NCBI GenBank assembly: GCA_020629115.1
Contig: JAHDDY010000015.1
Location: 1-59,157, forward strand
Direction of reading: 5' to 3'
Source of the DNA: Paracoccaceae bacterium
Lineage (GTDB): Bacteria; Pseudomonadota; Alphaproteobacteria; Rhodobacterales; Rhodobacteraceae
Length of the DNA stretch: 59,157 nucleotides
The notes under the pieces are model-generated. The model had not been told where the DNA came from, did no database searches, and saw nothing but the letters and a program-made list of their open reading frames with translations. A program made the translations under genes and the position numbers. Within the stretch, counting starts at the first letter, position 1. Each line of letters opens with the position of its first letter. Positions 22,529 through 28,552 of the stretch are shown here, piece after piece.

Positions 22529-23368
22529 TCATCTCCGCGCCGGGGGAACGCCGCCCACGAGATCGGTGATGGCCGCGGCGGCGGCGCGCACGTGCCCGGC
22601 CATCGTCTCCAGACCGGCATCGGGAAAGCGCACCGCCGGGCCGGAGACGGATACCCCCGCCACCGCCTCGCCCTCGGTATCGAAGATCGGGGCCGCGATG
22701 CAGCGCATCCCGAGATGCCGTTCCTCGTCGTCATAGGCCCAGCCCCGCGCCCGCGTCCGCGCGAGATCGGCCCGCAACGCCGCGTCGGTCGTCAGGGTGC
22801 GCGCCGTGTAGGCATCGAGGGGCGCGCGGGCCAGCAGGGCCGCCACCTCCGCCTCCGGCCACTGCGCGAGCAGCGCCTTGCCGATGCCCGAGGCGTGGAG
22901 CGGGCCGCGCGTGCCGGGGCGGAAGAAGGCGCGGACGGGGTTGTGCGATTCCACCTGTCCCATGAACACCACGCCCCGCGCATCCGCGATGGCCAGGTTC
23001 GCCGTCTCCCCCGTCTCGCGCATCAGGTGGCGCATCGGCTCCCGCGCCGCCTCGGCCACGCTGACCCGATGCACGAAGGCCCGCCCGATGCGGAACGCCT
23101 CGACCCCGATCATCCATTCCTGCGCCGTCCCGTCGAAGGCGACGATGCCGTGCCCCTGCATGGTGGTGAGCAGGCGATAGGCGGAGGAGGGCGGGATGCC
23201 GATCCGCGCGGCGATGTCCGACAGGCTACCCTTGCCCCCTTCCGCCAGCGCCGACAGGAGGGTCAGCCCCCGGTCCAGCGCCTGCACGACCCCGCCCGGC
23301 GCGGTGTCGTTCGCCCCGCTCCCCCGGGGCCGGCCGCGCGGACGCTTGGGCGTATCGGTCGTCGTCAT
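22529..23368 (-). CDS. bhcR: IclR-type regulator of the beta-hydroxyaspartate cycle (BhcR)
   Basis: The 279-residue protein has an N-terminal IclR winged helix (VVQALDRGLTLLSALAEG, then LSDIAARIGIPPSSAYRLLTTM) and a C-terminal effector domain (RGPLHASGIGKALLAQWPE, then GMRCIAAPIFDTEGEAVAGVSVSGP). The N-terminus is basic (KRPRGRPRGSG), an AT-hook-like extension. It is divergent from bhcA. In Paracoccus denitrificans BhcR controls the bhc cluster and responds to glyoxylate. ATG 23368 follows from the start of this extension; the frame is open further upstream but into the promoter region. Confidence 0.9.
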   Translation of the reverse strand: MTTTDTPKRPRGRPRGSGANDTAPGGVVQALDRGLTLLSALAEGGKGSLSDIAARIGIPPSSAYRLLTTMQGHGIVAFDGTAQEWMIGVEAFRIGRAFVHRVSVAEAAREPMRHLMRETGETANLAIADARGVVFMGQVESHNPVRAFFRPGTRGPLHASGIGKALLAQWPEAEVAALLARAPLDAYTARTLTTDAALRADLARTRARGWAYDDEERHLGMRCIAAPIFDTEGEAVAGVSVSGPAVRFPDAGLETMAGHVRAAAAAITDLVGGVPPARR

Positions 23369-23549: not shown

Positions 23550-24743
23550 ATGAGCAATCAGAACCCGGTCTTCATCCCCGGCCCGACGAACATCCCCGAG
23601 CGCCTGCGCCATGCGATGAACGTGCCCACCTTCGATCACCGCGCGCCCGATTTCGTGGACCTGCTCGACCCGCTTCTGTCCGACCTGAAGACGGTCTTCA
23701 AGACCGAGACCAGCCATGTCGTCACATTTCCGGCCAGCGGGACGGGCGGCTGGGAGGCGGCGATCACGAATACGCTCTCGCCCGGCGACCGGGTGCTCGT
23801 CGCCCGCTACGGCATGTTCTCGCACCGCTGGATCGACCTGTGCGAACGCCATGGCCTCGACGTGGAGGTGATCGAGCGGCCCTGGGGCGAGGGTGCGCCC
23901 GCCGACCTGTTCGCCGAGCGCCTGGCCGCCGACGGGGACCACGCCATCAAGGCCGTCCTCGTCACCCACAACGAGACCGCCACCGGCGTCGTCAGCGATA
24001 TCGCCGCCGTACGCCGGGCGATGGATGCGAGCGGGCATCCCGCGATGCTCTACGCCGATTGCGTCAGCTCGCTCGCCTCGATGGACTTCCGCATGGACGA
24101 ATGGGGCGTCGATCTCGCCGTCTCCGGCTCGCAGAAGGGGTTCATGCTCGCCACCGGCATGGCCGTCGTGGGGGTCAGCGAGAAGGCCGTCGCGGCGATG
24201 GACAGCGCCGCCTGCCCGCGCTGCTTCTTCGACTTCCGCGACATGATGGGCGCGAACGCGAAGGGCGGCTATCCCTACACGCCCCCCGTCCAGCTTCTGC
24301 ACGGCCTGCGCGCCAGCCTCGACATGCTGCTGGAAGAGGGGCTGGAGGCCGTCTTCGCGCGCCATGCCCGCATCGCCGGGGGGGTGCGCGCGGCGGTCGA
24401 TGCCTGGGGCCTGACGCTCTGCGCCAAGTCGCCCGACCTGTATTCCGATACCGTCAGCGCGATCTACGTCCCGGAAGGGTTCGACAGCGACGCCCTGACC
24501 GAACGGGCCTTCGGGGACTACGGCGTCTCCTTCGGCGTGGGCCTCGGCGAGATGGCGGGCAAGGCGTTCCGCATCGGTCATCTGGGATCGCTGACGGATG
24601 TCATGGCGCTGTCGGGGCTTGCGGCCATCGAGATGGCGATGAAGGATGAGGGCTACCCCATCGCGCTCGGCTCGGGCGTGGCGGCGGCGCAGGAGCATTA
24701 CCGCGCGACCCGGGCGCGGCCCGACATGAAGGAAGCGGCATGA
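23550..24743 (+). CDS. bhcA: L-aspartate--glyoxylate aminotransferase BhcA
   Basis: The 397-residue protein is a class V PLP aminotransferase of the serine-glyoxylate/alanine-glyoxylate type. It has FIPGPTNIPERLRHAMN at the N-terminus, FPASGTGGWEAAITN for phosphate binding, and the PLP lysine in VSGSQKGFMLA (K196). In the beta-hydroxyaspartate cycle BhcA converts glyoxylate plus aspartate to glycine and oxaloacetate. A strong ribosome-binding site (GAGGAGGG) precedes the ATG. The assignment over a generic serine-glyoxylate enzyme rests on the complete bhcRABCD context. The stop overlaps bhcB (ATGA). Confidence 0.93.
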   Translation: MSNQNPVFIPGPTNIPERLRHAMNVPTFDHRAPDFVDLLDPLLSDLKTVFKTETSHVVTFPASGTGGWEAAITNTLSPGDRVLVARYGMFSHRWIDLCERHGLDVEVIERPWGEGAPADLFAERLAADGDHAIKAVLVTHNETATGVVSDIAAVRRAMDASGHPAMLYADCVSSLASMDFRMDEWGVDLAVSGSQKGFMLATGMAVVGVSEKAVAAMDSAACPRCFFDFRDMMGANAKGGYPYTPPVQLLHGLRASLDMLLEEGLEAVFARHARIAGGVRAAVDAWGLTLCAKSPDLYSDTVSAIYVPEGFDSDALTERAFGDYGVSFGVGLGEMAGKAFRIGHLGSLTDVMALSGLAAIEMAMKDEGYPIALGSGVAAAQEHYRATRARPDMKEAA

Positions 24744-25699
24744 GCGATCTCGACCTGCCAGACTACGACGATGTGCTCGCCGCGCACGCGCGCATCGCGC
24801 CGCATATCCACCGCACGCCGATCCTGACCTCCGAGTATCTGGACGGCCTGACCGGGGCCTCGCTGTTCTTCAAGTGCGAGAACTTCCAGAAGGCCGGGGC
24901 GTTCAAGGCGCGGGGGGCCTCGAATGCCGTCTTCGGCCTGTCGGACGACCAGGCTTCGAAGGGCGTGGCGACGCATTCCTCGGGCAATCACGGCCTGTCG
25001 CTCAGCTACGCGGCGGGGCGGCGGGGCATCCCCGTCTCGGTCGTCATCCCCCGCACCGCGCCGCAGGCGAAGAAGGATGCCATGGCGGGATACGGCGCGC
25101 GGATCGTGGAATGCGAGCCGTCCACGTCATCGCGCGAGGCGACCTTCGCCAAGGTGCAGGAGGAGACCGGGGCCGATTTCGTCCATCCCTACAACGACCC
25201 GCGCGTGATCGCGGGGCAGGCCACCTGCTCGCGTGAGATGATGGAGCAGGTGGAGGGCCTCGACGCCGTGATCGCCCCCATCGGCGGCGGCGGCATGGTC
25301 TCGGGCACCTGCCTGACCCTTTCGAACATCGCCCCGCACGTGGAGATCTACGCCGCCGAGCCGGAGCAGGCGGACGATGCGTATCGCAGCTTCAAGGCCG
25401 GGCACATCATCGCCGACGATGCGCCGGTCACGGTCGCCGACGGGCTGAAGGTGCCGCTGAAGGAACGCACCTGGCATTTCGTCTCGAACCATGTCACCGA
25501 TATCCTGACCGCCAGCGAGCAGGAGATCGTCGACGCGATGCACCTGACCTGGCAGCGCATGAAGATCGTCATCGAGCCAAGCTGCGCCGTGCCGCTGGCG
25601 ACGATCCTCAAGAACCGTGAGGTCTTCGCGGGCAAGCGCGTCGGCGTCGTCATCACGGGCGGCAACGTGGACCTGAAATCCCTGCCGTGGATGACCTGA
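24740..25699 (+). CDS. bhcB: Beta-hydroxyaspartate dehydratase BhcB
   Basis: The 319-residue enzyme belongs to the serine/threonine dehydratase PLP fold. It has FFKCENFQKAGAFKARGASN with the PLP lysine (K56), THSSGNHGLSLSYAAG, and the glycine loop APIGGGGMVSGTC. BhcB dehydrates erythro-beta-hydroxyaspartate to iminosuccinate. It is translationally coupled to bhcA (4-base overlap) and followed 19 bases later by bhcC. On sequence alone it could be a serine racemase or threonine dehydratase; the operon decides. Confidence 0.93.
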   Translation: MSDLDLPDYDDVLAAHARIAPHIHRTPILTSEYLDGLTGASLFFKCENFQKAGAFKARGASNAVFGLSDDQASKGVATHSSGNHGLSLSYAAGRRGIPVSVVIPRTAPQAKKDAMAGYGARIVECEPSTSSREATFAKVQEETGADFVHPYNDPRVIAGQATCSREMMEQVEGLDAVIAPIGGGGMVSGTCLTLSNIAPHVEIYAAEPEQADDAYRSFKAGHIIADDAPVTVADGLKVPLKERTWHFVSNHVTDILTASEQEIVDAMHLTWQRMKIVIEPSCAVPLATILKNREVFAGKRVGVVITGGNVDLKSLPWMT

Positions 25700-25718: not shown

Positions 25719-26885
25719 ATGAACGCCTACACCAAGATCACCGACAACTACGAAGTCGGCTACGACATCCCCGCCGCCATCGGCATGGACGAGGCGGATA
25801 TCCAGACGCCGTGCCTCCTCATCGACCTCGACGCCTTCGAGCGCAACGTGAAGAAGATGCGCGATCATGCCGCGAAGATGGGCGTGCGCCACCGGGTCCA
25901 CGGCAAGATGCACAAGTCCGCGGACGTGGCGCATTACCAGATCGAGCATGGCGACGCCGTGGGCGTCTGCTGCCAGAAGGTCTCCGAGGCCGAGGCCTTC
26001 GCCCGGGCCGGGGTAAAGGACGTGCTCGTCTCAAACCAGGTGCGCGACCCGGCAAAGATCGACCGGCTGGCGCAGATCCCCAAGCTGGGCGCGCGGGCCC
26101 TCTGCTGCGTCGACGATATCGAGAACGTGCCCGACCTGTCGAACGCGGCGGTGAAGCACGGGACCGAGATCGAGTGCCTCGTGGAGATCGACTGCGGTGC
26201 GGGGCGCTGCGGCGTGACCACGACCGAGGACGTGGTCGCCATCGCCAGGGCCATCGACTTCGCGCCGAACCTGAAGTTCGCCGGCATCCAGGCCTATCAG
26301 GGCGCGATGCAGCATCTCGACAGCTACGACGAGCGCAAGGCCAAGATCGACATCGCCATCGCCATGGTCCGCGACGCGGTGGAGGGGCTGAAGGCCGCGG
26401 GCCTCGAATGCGACATCGTCGGCGGCGGGGGGACCGGGTCGTATTACTTCGAGGGCAATTCGGGCGTGTACAACGAGCTGCAATGCGGCTCCTACGCCTT
26501 CATGGACGCCGATTACGGCCGTATCCTCGACAAGGACGGCAAGCGCATCGACCAGGGCGAATGGGAGAACGCGCTGTTCATCCTCACCTCGGTGATGAGC
26601 CACGCAAAGGCCGACAAGGCCATCTGCGACGCAGGGCTGAAGGCGCAGTCGGTGGATAGCGGTCTGCCGGTCATCTACGGGCGCGATGACGTGGAATACG
26701 TCAAGTGCTCCGACGAGCACGGCGTCATCGCCGACCCGAAGGGCGTGCTGAAGGTCAACGACAAGCTGAAGCTCGTGCCCGGCCATTGCGACCCGACCTG
26801 CAACGTCCATGACTGGTATGTCGGCGTGCGCGACGGCAAGGTCGAGGCCCTGTGGCCGGTGACGGCGCGGGGTCTGGCGTATTGA
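25719..26885 (+). CDS. bhcC: Beta-hydroxyaspartate aldolase BhcC
   Basis: The 388-residue enzyme has the alanine-racemase N-terminal fold of D-threonine aldolase-like proteins. QTPCLLIDLDAFERNVKKM precedes the PLP lysine region RHRVHGKMHKSADVA (K63), with IDCGAGRCGV and IVGGGGTGSYYFE in the barrel. The C-terminal metal-binding segment includes SDEHGVI and VPGHCDPTCNVHD. BhcC joins glycine and glyoxylate to beta-hydroxyaspartate. A ribosome-binding site (AGAAGGAAGAAGAG) lies before the ATG. Transcription beyond it runs into a large inverted repeat and then a toxin-antitoxin module. Confidence 0.94.
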   Translation: MNAYTKITDNYEVGYDIPAAIGMDEADIQTPCLLIDLDAFERNVKKMRDHAAKMGVRHRVHGKMHKSADVAHYQIEHGDAVGVCCQKVSEAEAFARAGVKDVLVSNQVRDPAKIDRLAQIPKLGARALCCVDDIENVPDLSNAAVKHGTEIECLVEIDCGAGRCGVTTTEDVVAIARAIDFAPNLKFAGIQAYQGAMQHLDSYDERKAKIDIAIAMVRDAVEGLKAAGLECDIVGGGGTGSYYFEGNSGVYNELQCGSYAFMDADYGRILDKDGKRIDQGEWENALFILTSVMSHAKADKAICDAGLKAQSVDSGLPVIYGRDDVEYVKCSDEHGVIADPKGVLKVNDKLKLVPGHCDPTCNVHDWYVGVRDGKVEALWPVTARGLAY

Positions 26886-26897
26886 CGACGGCGATTG

Positions 26898-26928
26898 GTG
26901 ACTGCATATCTTCGTGATGTGCAGTCAC
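26898..26928. promoter_or_regulatory. 13-bp-arm inverted repeat ahead of the toxin-antitoxin genes
   Basis: GTGACTGCATATC and GATGTGCAGTCAC, separated by TTCGT, form arms of 13 bases with a single mismatch (the outer 9 bases are perfect). The repeat begins 13 bases after the bhcC stop and ends 16 bases before the antitoxin ATG. Such palindromes are typical operators bound by the antitoxin-toxin complex in FitAB/VapBC modules. Folded as RNA it could also act as an attenuator between bhcC and the downstream genes; TTTTC follows. Confidence 0.65.
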
Positions 26929-26944
26929 TTTTCAGGAGGTGCCC

Positions 26945-27208
26945 ATGGCCATGTCGATCCGGGGATTGCCCGATGACGTGAAGGACGGTCTGAGAGTCGA
27001 GGCAAAGCGTCAAGGCAAGTCGCTGAACGCGCATGTCGTGGAAATCCTCTCCCGCGAAGTCGTGGACGAGGACCCTGTCGTGAAGATCGCCAGATCGTAT
27101 GCGGGGAAGTACACGCGCGAGGACATGCTGGAGGCTCGACGGTTGGAGCGGGAAGCCGCGCTCGACTGGAGCATGTATGGCGACGACGATGATCCATCTG
27201 GACGGTAG
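26945..27208 (+). CDS. Ribbon-helix-helix antitoxin (FitA/VapB-like)
   Basis: The 87-residue protein opens MAMSIRGLPDDVKDGLRVEAKRQGKSLNAHVVEIL, a clear Arc/MetJ-type ribbon-helix-helix domain: short beta-strand SIRGLP followed by two helices. The C-terminal half is charged, as expected of a toxin-neutralising tail. A perfect AGGAGGT at 26934-26940 precedes it; ATG 26945 is chosen, with ATG 26951 and GTG 26939 as alternatives. Its 3' end overlaps the PIN-toxin start by 20 bases. Codon use is visibly less GC-biased than in bhcC, suggesting later arrival in the operon. Confidence 0.85.
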   Translation: MAMSIRGLPDDVKDGLRVEAKRQGKSLNAHVVEILSREVVDEDPVVKIARSYAGKYTREDMLEARRLEREAALDWSMYGDDDDPSGR

Positions 27209-27575
27209 CGTCATAGAGGCGATCATTTCCGGGGAATGGAACCTTCAAGAGCCGGCAGCCATGAGCGCCATCGCTTATTCCGAGGCGATCAGGGGCGCGG
27301 TTCTCAGTCCGACGAGTGGTTTTCTCATCGACAAGGCGTCGTTCGTTCGCAAGATACCACTCGACAGGATAATCTCCTTCGATCGCGACATCGCCGAAAT
27401 CTTCGCGGACCTCTCCCCCGGACGTACCGGCGGACAGCAGGCCCGCGACCTGATGATCGCCGCGACCGCCATCGCCCGGGGGGCGCGGCTGGCGACGAAC
27501 GACCGGCGGCTTGCCGCGCTGCACGGGGCGAGCGTGCCGGGGCGCGCACCGCTCGACATCCTTCATATCGAATAG
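27189..27575 (+). CDS. PIN-domain toxin (VapC/FitB-like)
   Basis: The 128-residue protein carries the four acidic positions of PIN nucleases: D5 (MIHLDGSVI), E32 (AIAYSEAIRG), D87 (ARDLMIAATA) and D105 (ATNDRRLAAL). VapC-type toxins cleave initiator tRNA or rRNA. The start at 27189 overlaps the antitoxin by 20 bases, usual for these modules. The first strand is atypical: LDGSV replaces the common LDTNV. The gene ends 11 bases before bhcD, whose ribosome-binding site overlaps this stop codon. Base use is less GC-rich than in neighbouring bhc genes. No frame disruption is seen, so the toxin is probably active. Confidence 0.85.
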   Translation: MIHLDGSVIEAIISGEWNLQEPAAMSAIAYSEAIRGAVLSPTSGFLIDKASFVRKIPLDRIISFDRDIAEIFADLSPGRTGGQQARDLMIAATAIARGARLATNDRRLAALHGASVPGRAPLDILHIE

Positions 27576-27586
27576 GAATTCATCCC

Positions 27587-28552
27587 ATGCTCATCGTCTC
27601 CGAAGAGGCCTGCAAGGCCGTCATCGACCGCGCCGCCGCCTTCACCGCCGTCGAGAGCGTCTTCGGCGCGATGGCGCGGGGGGATGCGTACAACTTTCCG
27701 GTCATCCGCGAGGCCATCGGCCATGCCGATGCGCTATACGGGTTCAAGTCCGGCTTCGACCGGGCGGGCATGGCGCTGGGGGTGAAATCGGGCGGATACT
27801 GGCCCGGCAACGCGGCGAAGGGGCTGACGAACCATCAGTCCACCATCTTCCTCTTCGATCCCGATACGGGCCAGCTCGCCGCGCTGGTGGGGGGCAACTA
27901 CCTGACGGCGATGCGCACGGCGGCCTCGTCCTCCGTCTCCATCGCCCATCTGGCGCGCCGGGACGCGAAGGTTCTCGGCATGGTCGGGGCGGGGCACCAG
28001 GCTGCCTTCCAGCTGCGCGCCGCCGCCGAGCAGCGCGATTTCGAGCGTGTGGTCGCGTGGAACTTCCACCCCGACATGCTCCCCGCGCTGGGCAAGGTGG
28101 CCGAGGAGATCGGCCTTCCCTTCGAGGCGGTCGAGCGCGAGCGGCTGGGCGCGGAGGCGGACGTGATCGTCACCATCACCTCGGCCCATGACAGCCTGCT
28201 GATGCGCGACTGGGTAACGCCGGGCACGCATGTCGCCTGCATGGGCACGGATACGAAGGGCAAGCAGGAGGTCGACCCGGCGCTCGTGGCCGCGGCGACG
28301 GTCTTTGCCGACGAGGTGGCGCAATCGGTCTCCATCGGCGAGGCGCAGCACGCGGTCGCATCCGGCGCGCTCGCCGAGAGCGCCATCACGCCCATCGGCG
28401 CGGTCATCAACGGCGATCATCCGGGGCGGACGTCCGATGACGAGATTACGCTGTTCGACGGGACGGGTGTGGGTCTTCAGGACCTCGCCGTCGCCTCGGT
28501 CGCGGCGAAACTGGCCGAAGAGCGGGGCGAGGCGCAGGTGGTGGCGCTGTAG
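27587..28552 (+). CDS. bhcD: Iminosuccinate reductase BhcD
   Basis: The 321-residue enzyme is of the ornithine cyclodeaminase/mu-crystallin family. It has GVKSGGYWPGN (K67), GGNYLTAMRTAA (R110), the nucleotide-binding loop LGMVGAGHQAAFQL (residues 130-143) and a C-terminal FDGTGVGLQDLAVAS. BhcD reduces iminosuccinate to L-aspartate with NADH, closing the cycle by regenerating the amino donor for BhcA. The ribosome-binding site TAGGAA includes the stop codon of the PIN toxin, so bhcD translation depends on a transcript that also carries the toxin. Confidence 0.93.
   Translation: MLIVSEEACKAVIDRAAAFTAVESVFGAMARGDAYNFPVIREAIGHADALYGFKSGFDRAGMALGVKSGGYWPGNAAKGLTNHQSTIFLFDPDTGQLAALVGGNYLTAMRTAASSSVSIAHLARRDAKVLGMVGAGHQAAFQLRAAAEQRDFERVVAWNFHPDMLPALGKVAEEIGLPFEAVERERLGAEADVIVTITSAHDSLLMRDWVTPGTHVACMGTDTKGKQEVDPALVAAATVFADEVAQSVSIGEAQHAVASGALAESAITPIGAVINGDHPGRTSDDEITLFDGTGVGLQDLAVASVAAKLAEERGEAQVVAL

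What the first reader, a model, noticed from the sequence alone, without database searches (positions are those of the whole stretch)
26886..27586. Toxin-antitoxin module inserted inside the beta-hydroxyaspartate cycle operon
Between bhcC and bhcD, normally adjacent, lie an RHH antitoxin and a PIN toxin, both intact. The toxin's stop codon is part of the bhcD ribosome-binding site, so bhcD can hardly be translated without toxin mRNA being made from the same transcript. Codon use of the pair is less GC-biased than the bhc genes, suggesting insertion. Possible consequences: (a) stabilisation of the pathway genes against loss (loss of the region would free the toxin); (b) glyoxylate induction of bhc changes the toxin-antitoxin level; (c) the module's own promoter gives bhcD separate expression. 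No such link is known to me.
Basis: partly seen in the sequence, partly recalled or inferred. Interest (0 to 1): 0.7.

Follow-up and report, generated by a model that had tools for sequence, protein, structure and literature searches.

The report
Toxin-antitoxin pair inside a metabolic operon
A small selfish toxin-antitoxin gene pair has landed between two genes of a glyoxylate-use operon without breaking it; the pair looks like one of several such landings in operons of this bacterium and its relatives rather than a special part of the pathway.

Summary
Between bhcC (ends 26885) and bhcD (starts 27587) lie an intact FitA-like antitoxin gene (26945-27208) and an intact PIN toxin gene (27189-27575). 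It is an insertion: of 126 bhcC-bhcD pairs measured in the family, 3 are 500 bp or more apart, the other two holding a permease gene, and the 8 other bhc loci of the genus lack the pair. It brings a 31-bp palindrome over a promoter-like site; the only other site in the genome fitting its pattern precedes a paralogous pair. The -35 box shares bases with the bhcC stop, and the toxin stop shares bases with the ancestral bhcD ribosome-binding site, so the landing is tight and probably non-polar. A special link to glyoxylate use is not supported: relatives of the pair lie at three other places in the genus, and other toxin-antitoxin pairs of this genome sit inside rph-rdgB and sucC-sucD and 4 nt before aceE. 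The sucC-sucD gap holds such pairs in 3 genomes of the genus and is empty in 3. Likeliest: a mobile, autoregulated module tolerated inside an operon, with bhcD now its third gene. Toxicity, promoter activity and read-through are untested.

The parts
22529..23368 (-). bhcR, IclR-type regulator of the bhc genes
   Evidence: NCBIfam NF045644, 362 bits, cut-off 350
23553..24743 (+). bhcA, aspartate-glyoxylate aminotransferase
   Evidence: NF045640, 714.5 bits, cut-off 650
24740..25699 (+). bhcB, beta-hydroxyaspartate dehydratase
   Evidence: NF045641, 600.9 bits, cut-off 550
25719..26885 (+). bhcC, 3-hydroxy-D-aspartate aldolase
   Evidence: NF045642, 742.5 bits, cut-off 690
26882..26909 (+). promoter-like site TTGACG-N16-GCATAT; its TTGA includes the bhcC stop TGA
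   Evidence: Same geometry (TTGATG-N16-GCATAT) before the paralogous antitoxin on contig C281 (sequences); not listed by the sigma-70 scan, whose -10 rule it fails
26898..26928 (.). 31-bp palindrome, proposed antitoxin operator overlapping the -10
   Evidence: 13-nt arms, 92% complementary; a pattern built from this site and the paralogue's has no third place in the 4.3-Mb genome, 0 in the reversed control
26934..26939 (+). AGGAGG, ribosome-binding site of the antitoxin gene
   Evidence: Sequence
26945..27208 (+). FitA-like ribbon-helix-helix antitoxin, 87 aa
   Evidence: Pfam PF22513, 38.8 bits, cut-off 27
27189..27575 (+). PIN-domain toxin, 128 aa, compact N-terminus, acidic positions D5, E32, D87, D105
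   Evidence: Pfam PF01850, 37.4 bits, cut-off 23.6; the four positions kept in 4 of 4 aligned members
27574..27577 (+). AGGA, ancestral bhcD ribosome-binding site, overlapped by the toxin stop TAG
   Evidence: AGGA in 7 of 8 and AGGT in 1 of 8 other bhcD leaders of the genus
27587..28552 (+). bhcD, iminosuccinate reductase
   Evidence: NF045643, 584.6 bits, cut-off 500

Best explanation
A mobile type II toxin-antitoxin module of the FitAB/VapBC kind, of a compact subfamily that I found only in this genus, landed in the bhcC-bhcD gap. The antitoxin (with toxin) binds the 31-bp palindrome over its own promoter and represses the pair. No terminator follows, so read-through from bhcABC continues; bhcD keeps its old ribosome-binding site and is now the last gene of a bhcABC-antitoxin-toxin-bhcD transcript, with an extra, TA-regulated start. 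The landing is tolerated because it is non-polar. It is one of several such landings in operons of this genome and has no specific role in glyoxylate use. Shown: gene content, insertion, palindrome architecture shared with the paralogue, junction anatomy, other landings. Inferred: operator function, repression, co-transcription, toxicity, neutrality.
For: Insertion: 3 of 126 linked pairs in the family have a gap of 500 nt or more, the window's with the TA pair and two with a permease gene; 0 of 80 named bhcD loci (79 with bhcC) carry a relative of either protein at E<=1e-3; 8 of 8 other bhc loci found in the genus lack it. Foreign composition: the two lowest third-position GC values of 59 genes. 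Own control element: palindrome and TTGAyG-N16-GCATAT geometry shared with the C281 paralogue (toxin 32%, antitoxin 31% identical), with no third place in the genome. Mobility: relatives at G303:C77 beside an ORF that looks like rimP and at G300:C30 beside a methyltransferase-like ORF, neighbours named by eye. General habit: rph-[TA]-rdgB-hemW, sucC-[TA]-two ORFs-sucD and [TA]-4 nt-aceE in the same genome; after the main sucC a TA pair follows in 3 of 11 genomes and the site is empty in 3.
Against: No expression or toxicity data. The toxin has Gly where its three aligned relatives have Thr after the first Asp, so activity is not certain. In the two more distant relatives the palindrome is matched by 190 and 490 of 2000 shuffles, so it is no evidence there. 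No close homologue of this very pair was found, so selection on it cannot be measured. 29 of 58 gene boundaries in the window are co-directional and under 100 nt, so TA pairs inside operons need no special preference. Gaps under 500 nt were not read one by one except in 2 family genomes (G002, G250) and the genus loci.
Confidence: 0.72

Rival explanations
1. Recruited regulation: the TA promoter gives bhcD its own expression, tied to antitoxin level, so stress or antitoxin loss raises iminosuccinate reductase independently of BhcR and glyoxylate.
For: Promoter/operator-like element in the gap and a tight junction with the bhcD ribosome-binding site. Precedent: E. coli mazEF-mazG and S. aureus mazEF-sigB are transcriptionally linked (PMC3920265, passages).
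Against: Seen in one genome only; the 8 other bhc loci found in the genus lack the pair; no conservation to show selection.
Confidence: 0.14
2. Addiction: the module stabilises the bhc genes against loss because losing the region frees the toxin.
For: bhcD was not found in 5 of 14 genomes of the genus, some of them incomplete, so the pathway may be patchy.
Against: 8 genomes keep bhc without the module; modules of the same general kind sit beside housekeeping genes such as sucC and rdgB.
Confidence: 0.05
3. Decaying remnant: the toxin is already inactive and the pair is a drifting passenger.
For: Gly instead of Thr after the first Asp; lowest PIN score of the genome's 8 PIN loci.
Against: Both frames open, four acidic positions kept, gene overlap and antitoxin ribosome-binding site intact. 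The low-confidence AlphaFold model says nothing either way, as its alignment held two sequences.
Confidence: 0.16
4. The palindrome is chiefly an attenuator or terminator hairpin that limits read-through to the toxin and bhcD.
For: The stretch 26880-26945 folds at -26.9 kcal/mol, z -3.8, and TTTT follows the palindrome.
Against: Any DNA palindrome folds so; only four T; the paralogue has the palindrome without a T run; not listed by the terminator scan.
Confidence: 0.1

Closest known systems
FitAB / VapBC type II toxin-antitoxin systems
   Same: RHH antitoxin (FitA-like) upstream of and overlapping a PIN toxin; inverted repeat before the antitoxin gene, as described for vapBC operators (PMC3920265, passages).
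   Different: Compact PIN with a short N-terminal part; at E<=1e-6 the toxin matched 1 of 394 family genomes and 1 of 385 class genomes, in both cases its own; set inside a metabolic operon.
TA modules transcriptionally linked to a following gene (E. coli mazEF-mazG, S. aureus mazEF-sigB)
   Same: A downstream gene shares the TA transcript (PMC3920265, passages).
   Different: There the linkage is reported as fact in a review; here it is inferred from the sequence, and the following gene is one step of a catabolic operon that the module interrupts.
bhc operon of Paracoccus denitrificans (bhcR, bhcABCD)
   Same: Same gene set with an adjacent BhcR, an activator of bhc transcription (PMC11323563, passages including the abstract).
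   Different: The passages seen mention no TA module between bhcC and bhcD.

Membership tests
FitAB/VapBC-type type II TA module | RHH antitoxin of the FitA-like family | tested here: met
   PF22513 38.8 bits, cut-off 27
FitAB/VapBC-type type II TA module | PIN-domain toxin with the acidic site | tested here: met
   PF01850 37.4 bits, cut-off 23.6; D5, E32, D87, D105 kept in 4 of 4 aligned members; that these residues form the site is recalled
FitAB/VapBC-type type II TA module | Antitoxin gene first, genes overlapping or abutting | tested here: met
   20-nt overlap
FitAB/VapBC-type type II TA module | Autoregulation through an operator palindrome | tested here: inconclusive
   Palindrome present and its architecture shared with the paralogue; binding not testable here
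FitAB/VapBC-type type II TA module | Toxin arrests growth, antitoxin rescues | not testable with these tools
   Needs expression
beta-hydroxyaspartate cycle operon | bhcA, bhcB, bhcC, bhcD and bhcR together | tested here: met
   All five over equivalog cut-offs
TA-linked metabolic gene (co-transcription) | One transcript spanning TA and the next gene | not testable with these tools
   No RNA data; the scan lists no terminator-like site between 26886 and 27586

The most novel reading that the evidence does not exclude
Nesting in operons is a way of life for TA modules in this genus. Terminator-less modules settle between co-transcribed genes of core metabolism (sucC-sucD repeatedly, rph-rdgB, bhcC-bhcD, before aceE), so that their removal would be polar on a needed gene. 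That protects the module, and it places those genes under a second, TA-regulated promoter where the module carries one.
Probability: 0.2. Interest if true: 0.6.

Novelty: new member of a known kind. Interest (0 to 1): 0.36.

Why it matters
If the general reading holds, TA modules persist partly by sitting where deletion hurts the neighbours, which needs no function in stress, defence or plasmid keeping. The genus offers filled and empty versions of one site (sucC-sucD) for a direct test. For the bhc pathway itself it matters little unless the TA promoter proves to drive bhcD.

Tried and rejected
Plasmids: no match to either protein at E<=1e-3. Viral contigs: 16 pattern hits, none a relative of the toxin. 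Two-sequence toxin profile in 289 class genomes: 8 genomes besides the window's own, weak hits (E 1e-8 to 1e-5), 9 loci; the upstream gene was seen in 3 of the 9 and looked Phd-like by eye, so they were not counted as relatives. Antitoxin profile in 292 genomes of the order: only the window's own. AlphaFold model of the toxin: mean pLDDT 50.7, not used and not searched. PDB sequence searches: toxin best E 0.31; the antitoxin's best hits are designed alpha-repeat proteins (E 0.0011 and worse), taken as chance. Terminator reading of the palindrome: kept as a weak rival. Transposon ends: only a 9-nt near-repeat (26902-26910 and 27561-27569), taken as chance. Literature: nine searches; no title or abstract start in the listings is about a TA module in a bhc, sucC-sucD or rph-rdgB operon. 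Only listings and the passages of two papers (PMC11323563, PMC3920265) were seen, several lists were cut, and the library is open-access only, so this is weak evidence that it is not in print.

Of the bhcC rows printed I left out 20, all lower-scoring, 19 from genomes without a bhcD match and G222:C93 (a second bhcC on another contig than bhcD). One search also says that more matches are not listed. 6 of 132 bhcD matches had no linked bhcC and are outside the 126: in G183 and G126 the two lie on different contigs, the bhcC row of G166 was not printed, and G136, G178 and G271 have no bhcC match listed. The PIN survey of the window's genome used PF01850 only; other toxin families were not surveyed.

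Full report
What is there. The stretch 26886-27586 is exactly the gap between bhcC and bhcD of a complete bhcR/bhcABCD cluster; all five genes pass their NCBIfam equivalog cut-offs. It holds an 87-aa FitA-like ribbon-helix-helix antitoxin (26945-27208) and a 128-aa PIN toxin (27189-27575), both over their Pfam cut-offs, overlapping by 20 nt. Four acidic positions of the toxin are kept in all four members aligned; a Thr after the first Asp in the other three is Gly here.

It is an insertion. In a sample of 295 genomes of the family, 132 bhcD matches were found in 129 genomes. Of these 126 have bhcC just upstream on the same strand, with a median gap of 85 nt; 8 gaps exceed 200 nt and 3 reach 500 nt. 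Of those three, one is the window and two hold a cytosine/purine-permease gene (L101, L102). Of the shorter gaps I read only G002 and G250. Among 80 named bhcD loci, 79 have bhcC in reach, and none of the 80 carries a relative of either protein at E<=1e-3; one of them (L029) holds a GNAT-type ORF in the gap. In the genus (record titles of its members: uncultured Neomegalonema), 9 of 14 genomes have bhcD, and the 8 besides the window have gaps of 69-495 nt without the pair. Third-position GC of the pair, 0.75 and 0.78, is the lowest of 59 called genes in the window.

Junctions. On the left, bhcC ends TAT TGA, as in two relatives (L010, L095). The TTGA opens a promoter-like TTGACG-N16-GCATAT (26882-26909), overlapped by a 31-bp palindrome (26898-26928); AGGAGG and the antitoxin follow. 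On the right, the toxin stop TAG runs into AGGA, the ribosome-binding site that 7 of 8 relatives have before bhcD (the eighth AGGT). So the module fills the gap to within a few bases on both sides. A palindrome of the same length and architecture precedes a paralogous TA pair on contig C281, with the same spacing to a TTGATG box. A pattern built from these two sites finds them and no third place in the genome, with 0 in the reversed control; finding the two is by construction, finding no third is the information. 1 and 0 of 2000 shuffles of the window's and C281's upstream stretches do as well; for the two more distant relatives 190 and 490 do, so those are no evidence. The sigma-70 scan did not list this promoter (its -10 fails the scan's rule) but did list one inside the toxin gene. 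As RNA the stretch folds well (z -3.8), but the four-T tail is weak and absent from the paralogue.

Where relatives of the pair are. At E<=1e-6 the toxin matches 1 of 394 family and 1 of 385 class genomes, both times its own, at two places; nothing in plasmids or viral contigs. With a two-sequence profile, two further clear members appear in the genus, at G303:C77 and G300:C30 (E 1.7e-21 and 4.7e-20; 14 genomes searched; two weaker hits, E 9.1e-6 and 3.9e-5, are the rph-rdgB pairs described below). Each of the two has an antitoxin gene directly upstream that aligns with the window's. They lie beside unrelated genes (neighbours named by eye). The subfamily is thus at four different places in three genomes.

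Other TA pairs in operons. As a control I looked at the 8 PIN loci that PF01850 finds in the window's genome. Three are inside what look like operons. They are bhcC-[TA]-bhcD; rph-[TA]-rdgB-hemW on C189, with a 4-nt overlap of toxin and rdgB; and mdh-sucC-[TA]-two small ORFs-sucD on C175, with 4-nt overlaps from sucC through the pair to the first small ORF. A fourth pair ends 4 nt before aceE on C157, and a fifth toxin gene lies 42 nt before an amidase-like gene on C127. rph, rdgB, hemW, sucC, sucD and aceE pass a curated NCBIfam cut-off; the mdh and amidase stretches I scored fall short of theirs, probably because my simple gene caller shortened both. The antitoxin of the sucC-sucD pair scores only below a Pfam cut-off; its toxin is over the PIN cut-off. 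The rph-[TA]-rdgB order also appears in G302, read by eye. At sucC-sucD, 11 of 14 genus genomes have the main sucC. Pairs related to this one follow it in 3 (window genome; G295, antitoxin 75% and a contig-cut toxin 70% identical; G306, 42% and 52%). The site is empty in 3 (G297, G300, G305). In G299 about 550 nt of other sequence lie there without a match to this pair. In 3 no sucD-side gene was found in reach, and in 1 the contig ends. That rph and rdgB are neighbours in most Alphaproteobacteria is recalled, not tested. For scale, 29 of 58 gene boundaries in the window are co-directional and under 100 nt, so three of eight inside operons is no excess.

How it most likely works. The antitoxin, alone or with the toxin, represses the pair at the palindrome, as described for vapBC (PMC3920265, passages). 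No terminator-like site is listed in the gap, so transcripts from bhcA should run through to bhcD, and the module's own promoter may add bhcD-carrying transcripts. Precedents for a gene sharing a TA transcript are mazEF-mazG and mazEF-sigB (same passages). In Paracoccus denitrificans BhcR activates bhc and glyoxylate raises expression (PMC11323563, passages including the abstract). If that holds here, glyoxylate would raise antitoxin and toxin together, which by itself should not free the toxin. That is inference.

Verdict. Real, correctly described, and a clean example of a TA module settled inside a catabolic operon without breaking it. The special link to the pathway is not supported; the module is one of several such landings. 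The wider pattern, above all the sucC-sucD site with filled and empty versions, is the more interesting lead.

Noticed in passing
L129 2772-3409 (G000:C175), L137, L138: A TA pair between sucC and sucD in three genomes of the genus (sucD side beyond the contig end in one), with 4-nt overlaps to its neighbours in the window's genome; the site is empty in three other genomes and holds other sequence in one.
   Followed up: partly
L127 3126-3802 (G000:C189) and L133 (G302:C21): A FitAB-like pair between rph and rdgB-hemW in two genomes of the genus, with the toxin stop overlapping the rdgB start.
   Followed up: partly
L130 3062-3495 (G000:C157): A FitAB-like toxin gene ends 4 nt before aceE (pyruvate dehydrogenase E1).
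   Followed up: no
L101, L102, L103: In two family genomes a cytosine/purine-type permease gene lies between bhcC and bhcD; a third (G002, 499-nt gap) may hold a remnant, which was not tested.
   Followed up: partly
L029 1912-2679: A GNAT acetyltransferase ORF between bhcC and bhcD in a genome titled Hyphomicrobiales.
   Followed up: partly
L012 4502-5001: A 495-nt bhcC-bhcD gap in a genus relative without a match to the TA proteins; origin unknown.
   Followed up: no
L009, L010, L013, L014 bhcC-bhcD gaps: The gap in several genus relatives carries GC-rich stem-like repeats (such as CCCTCTCCC...GGGAGAGGG), seen by eye, as if it often takes up small elements.
   Followed up: no
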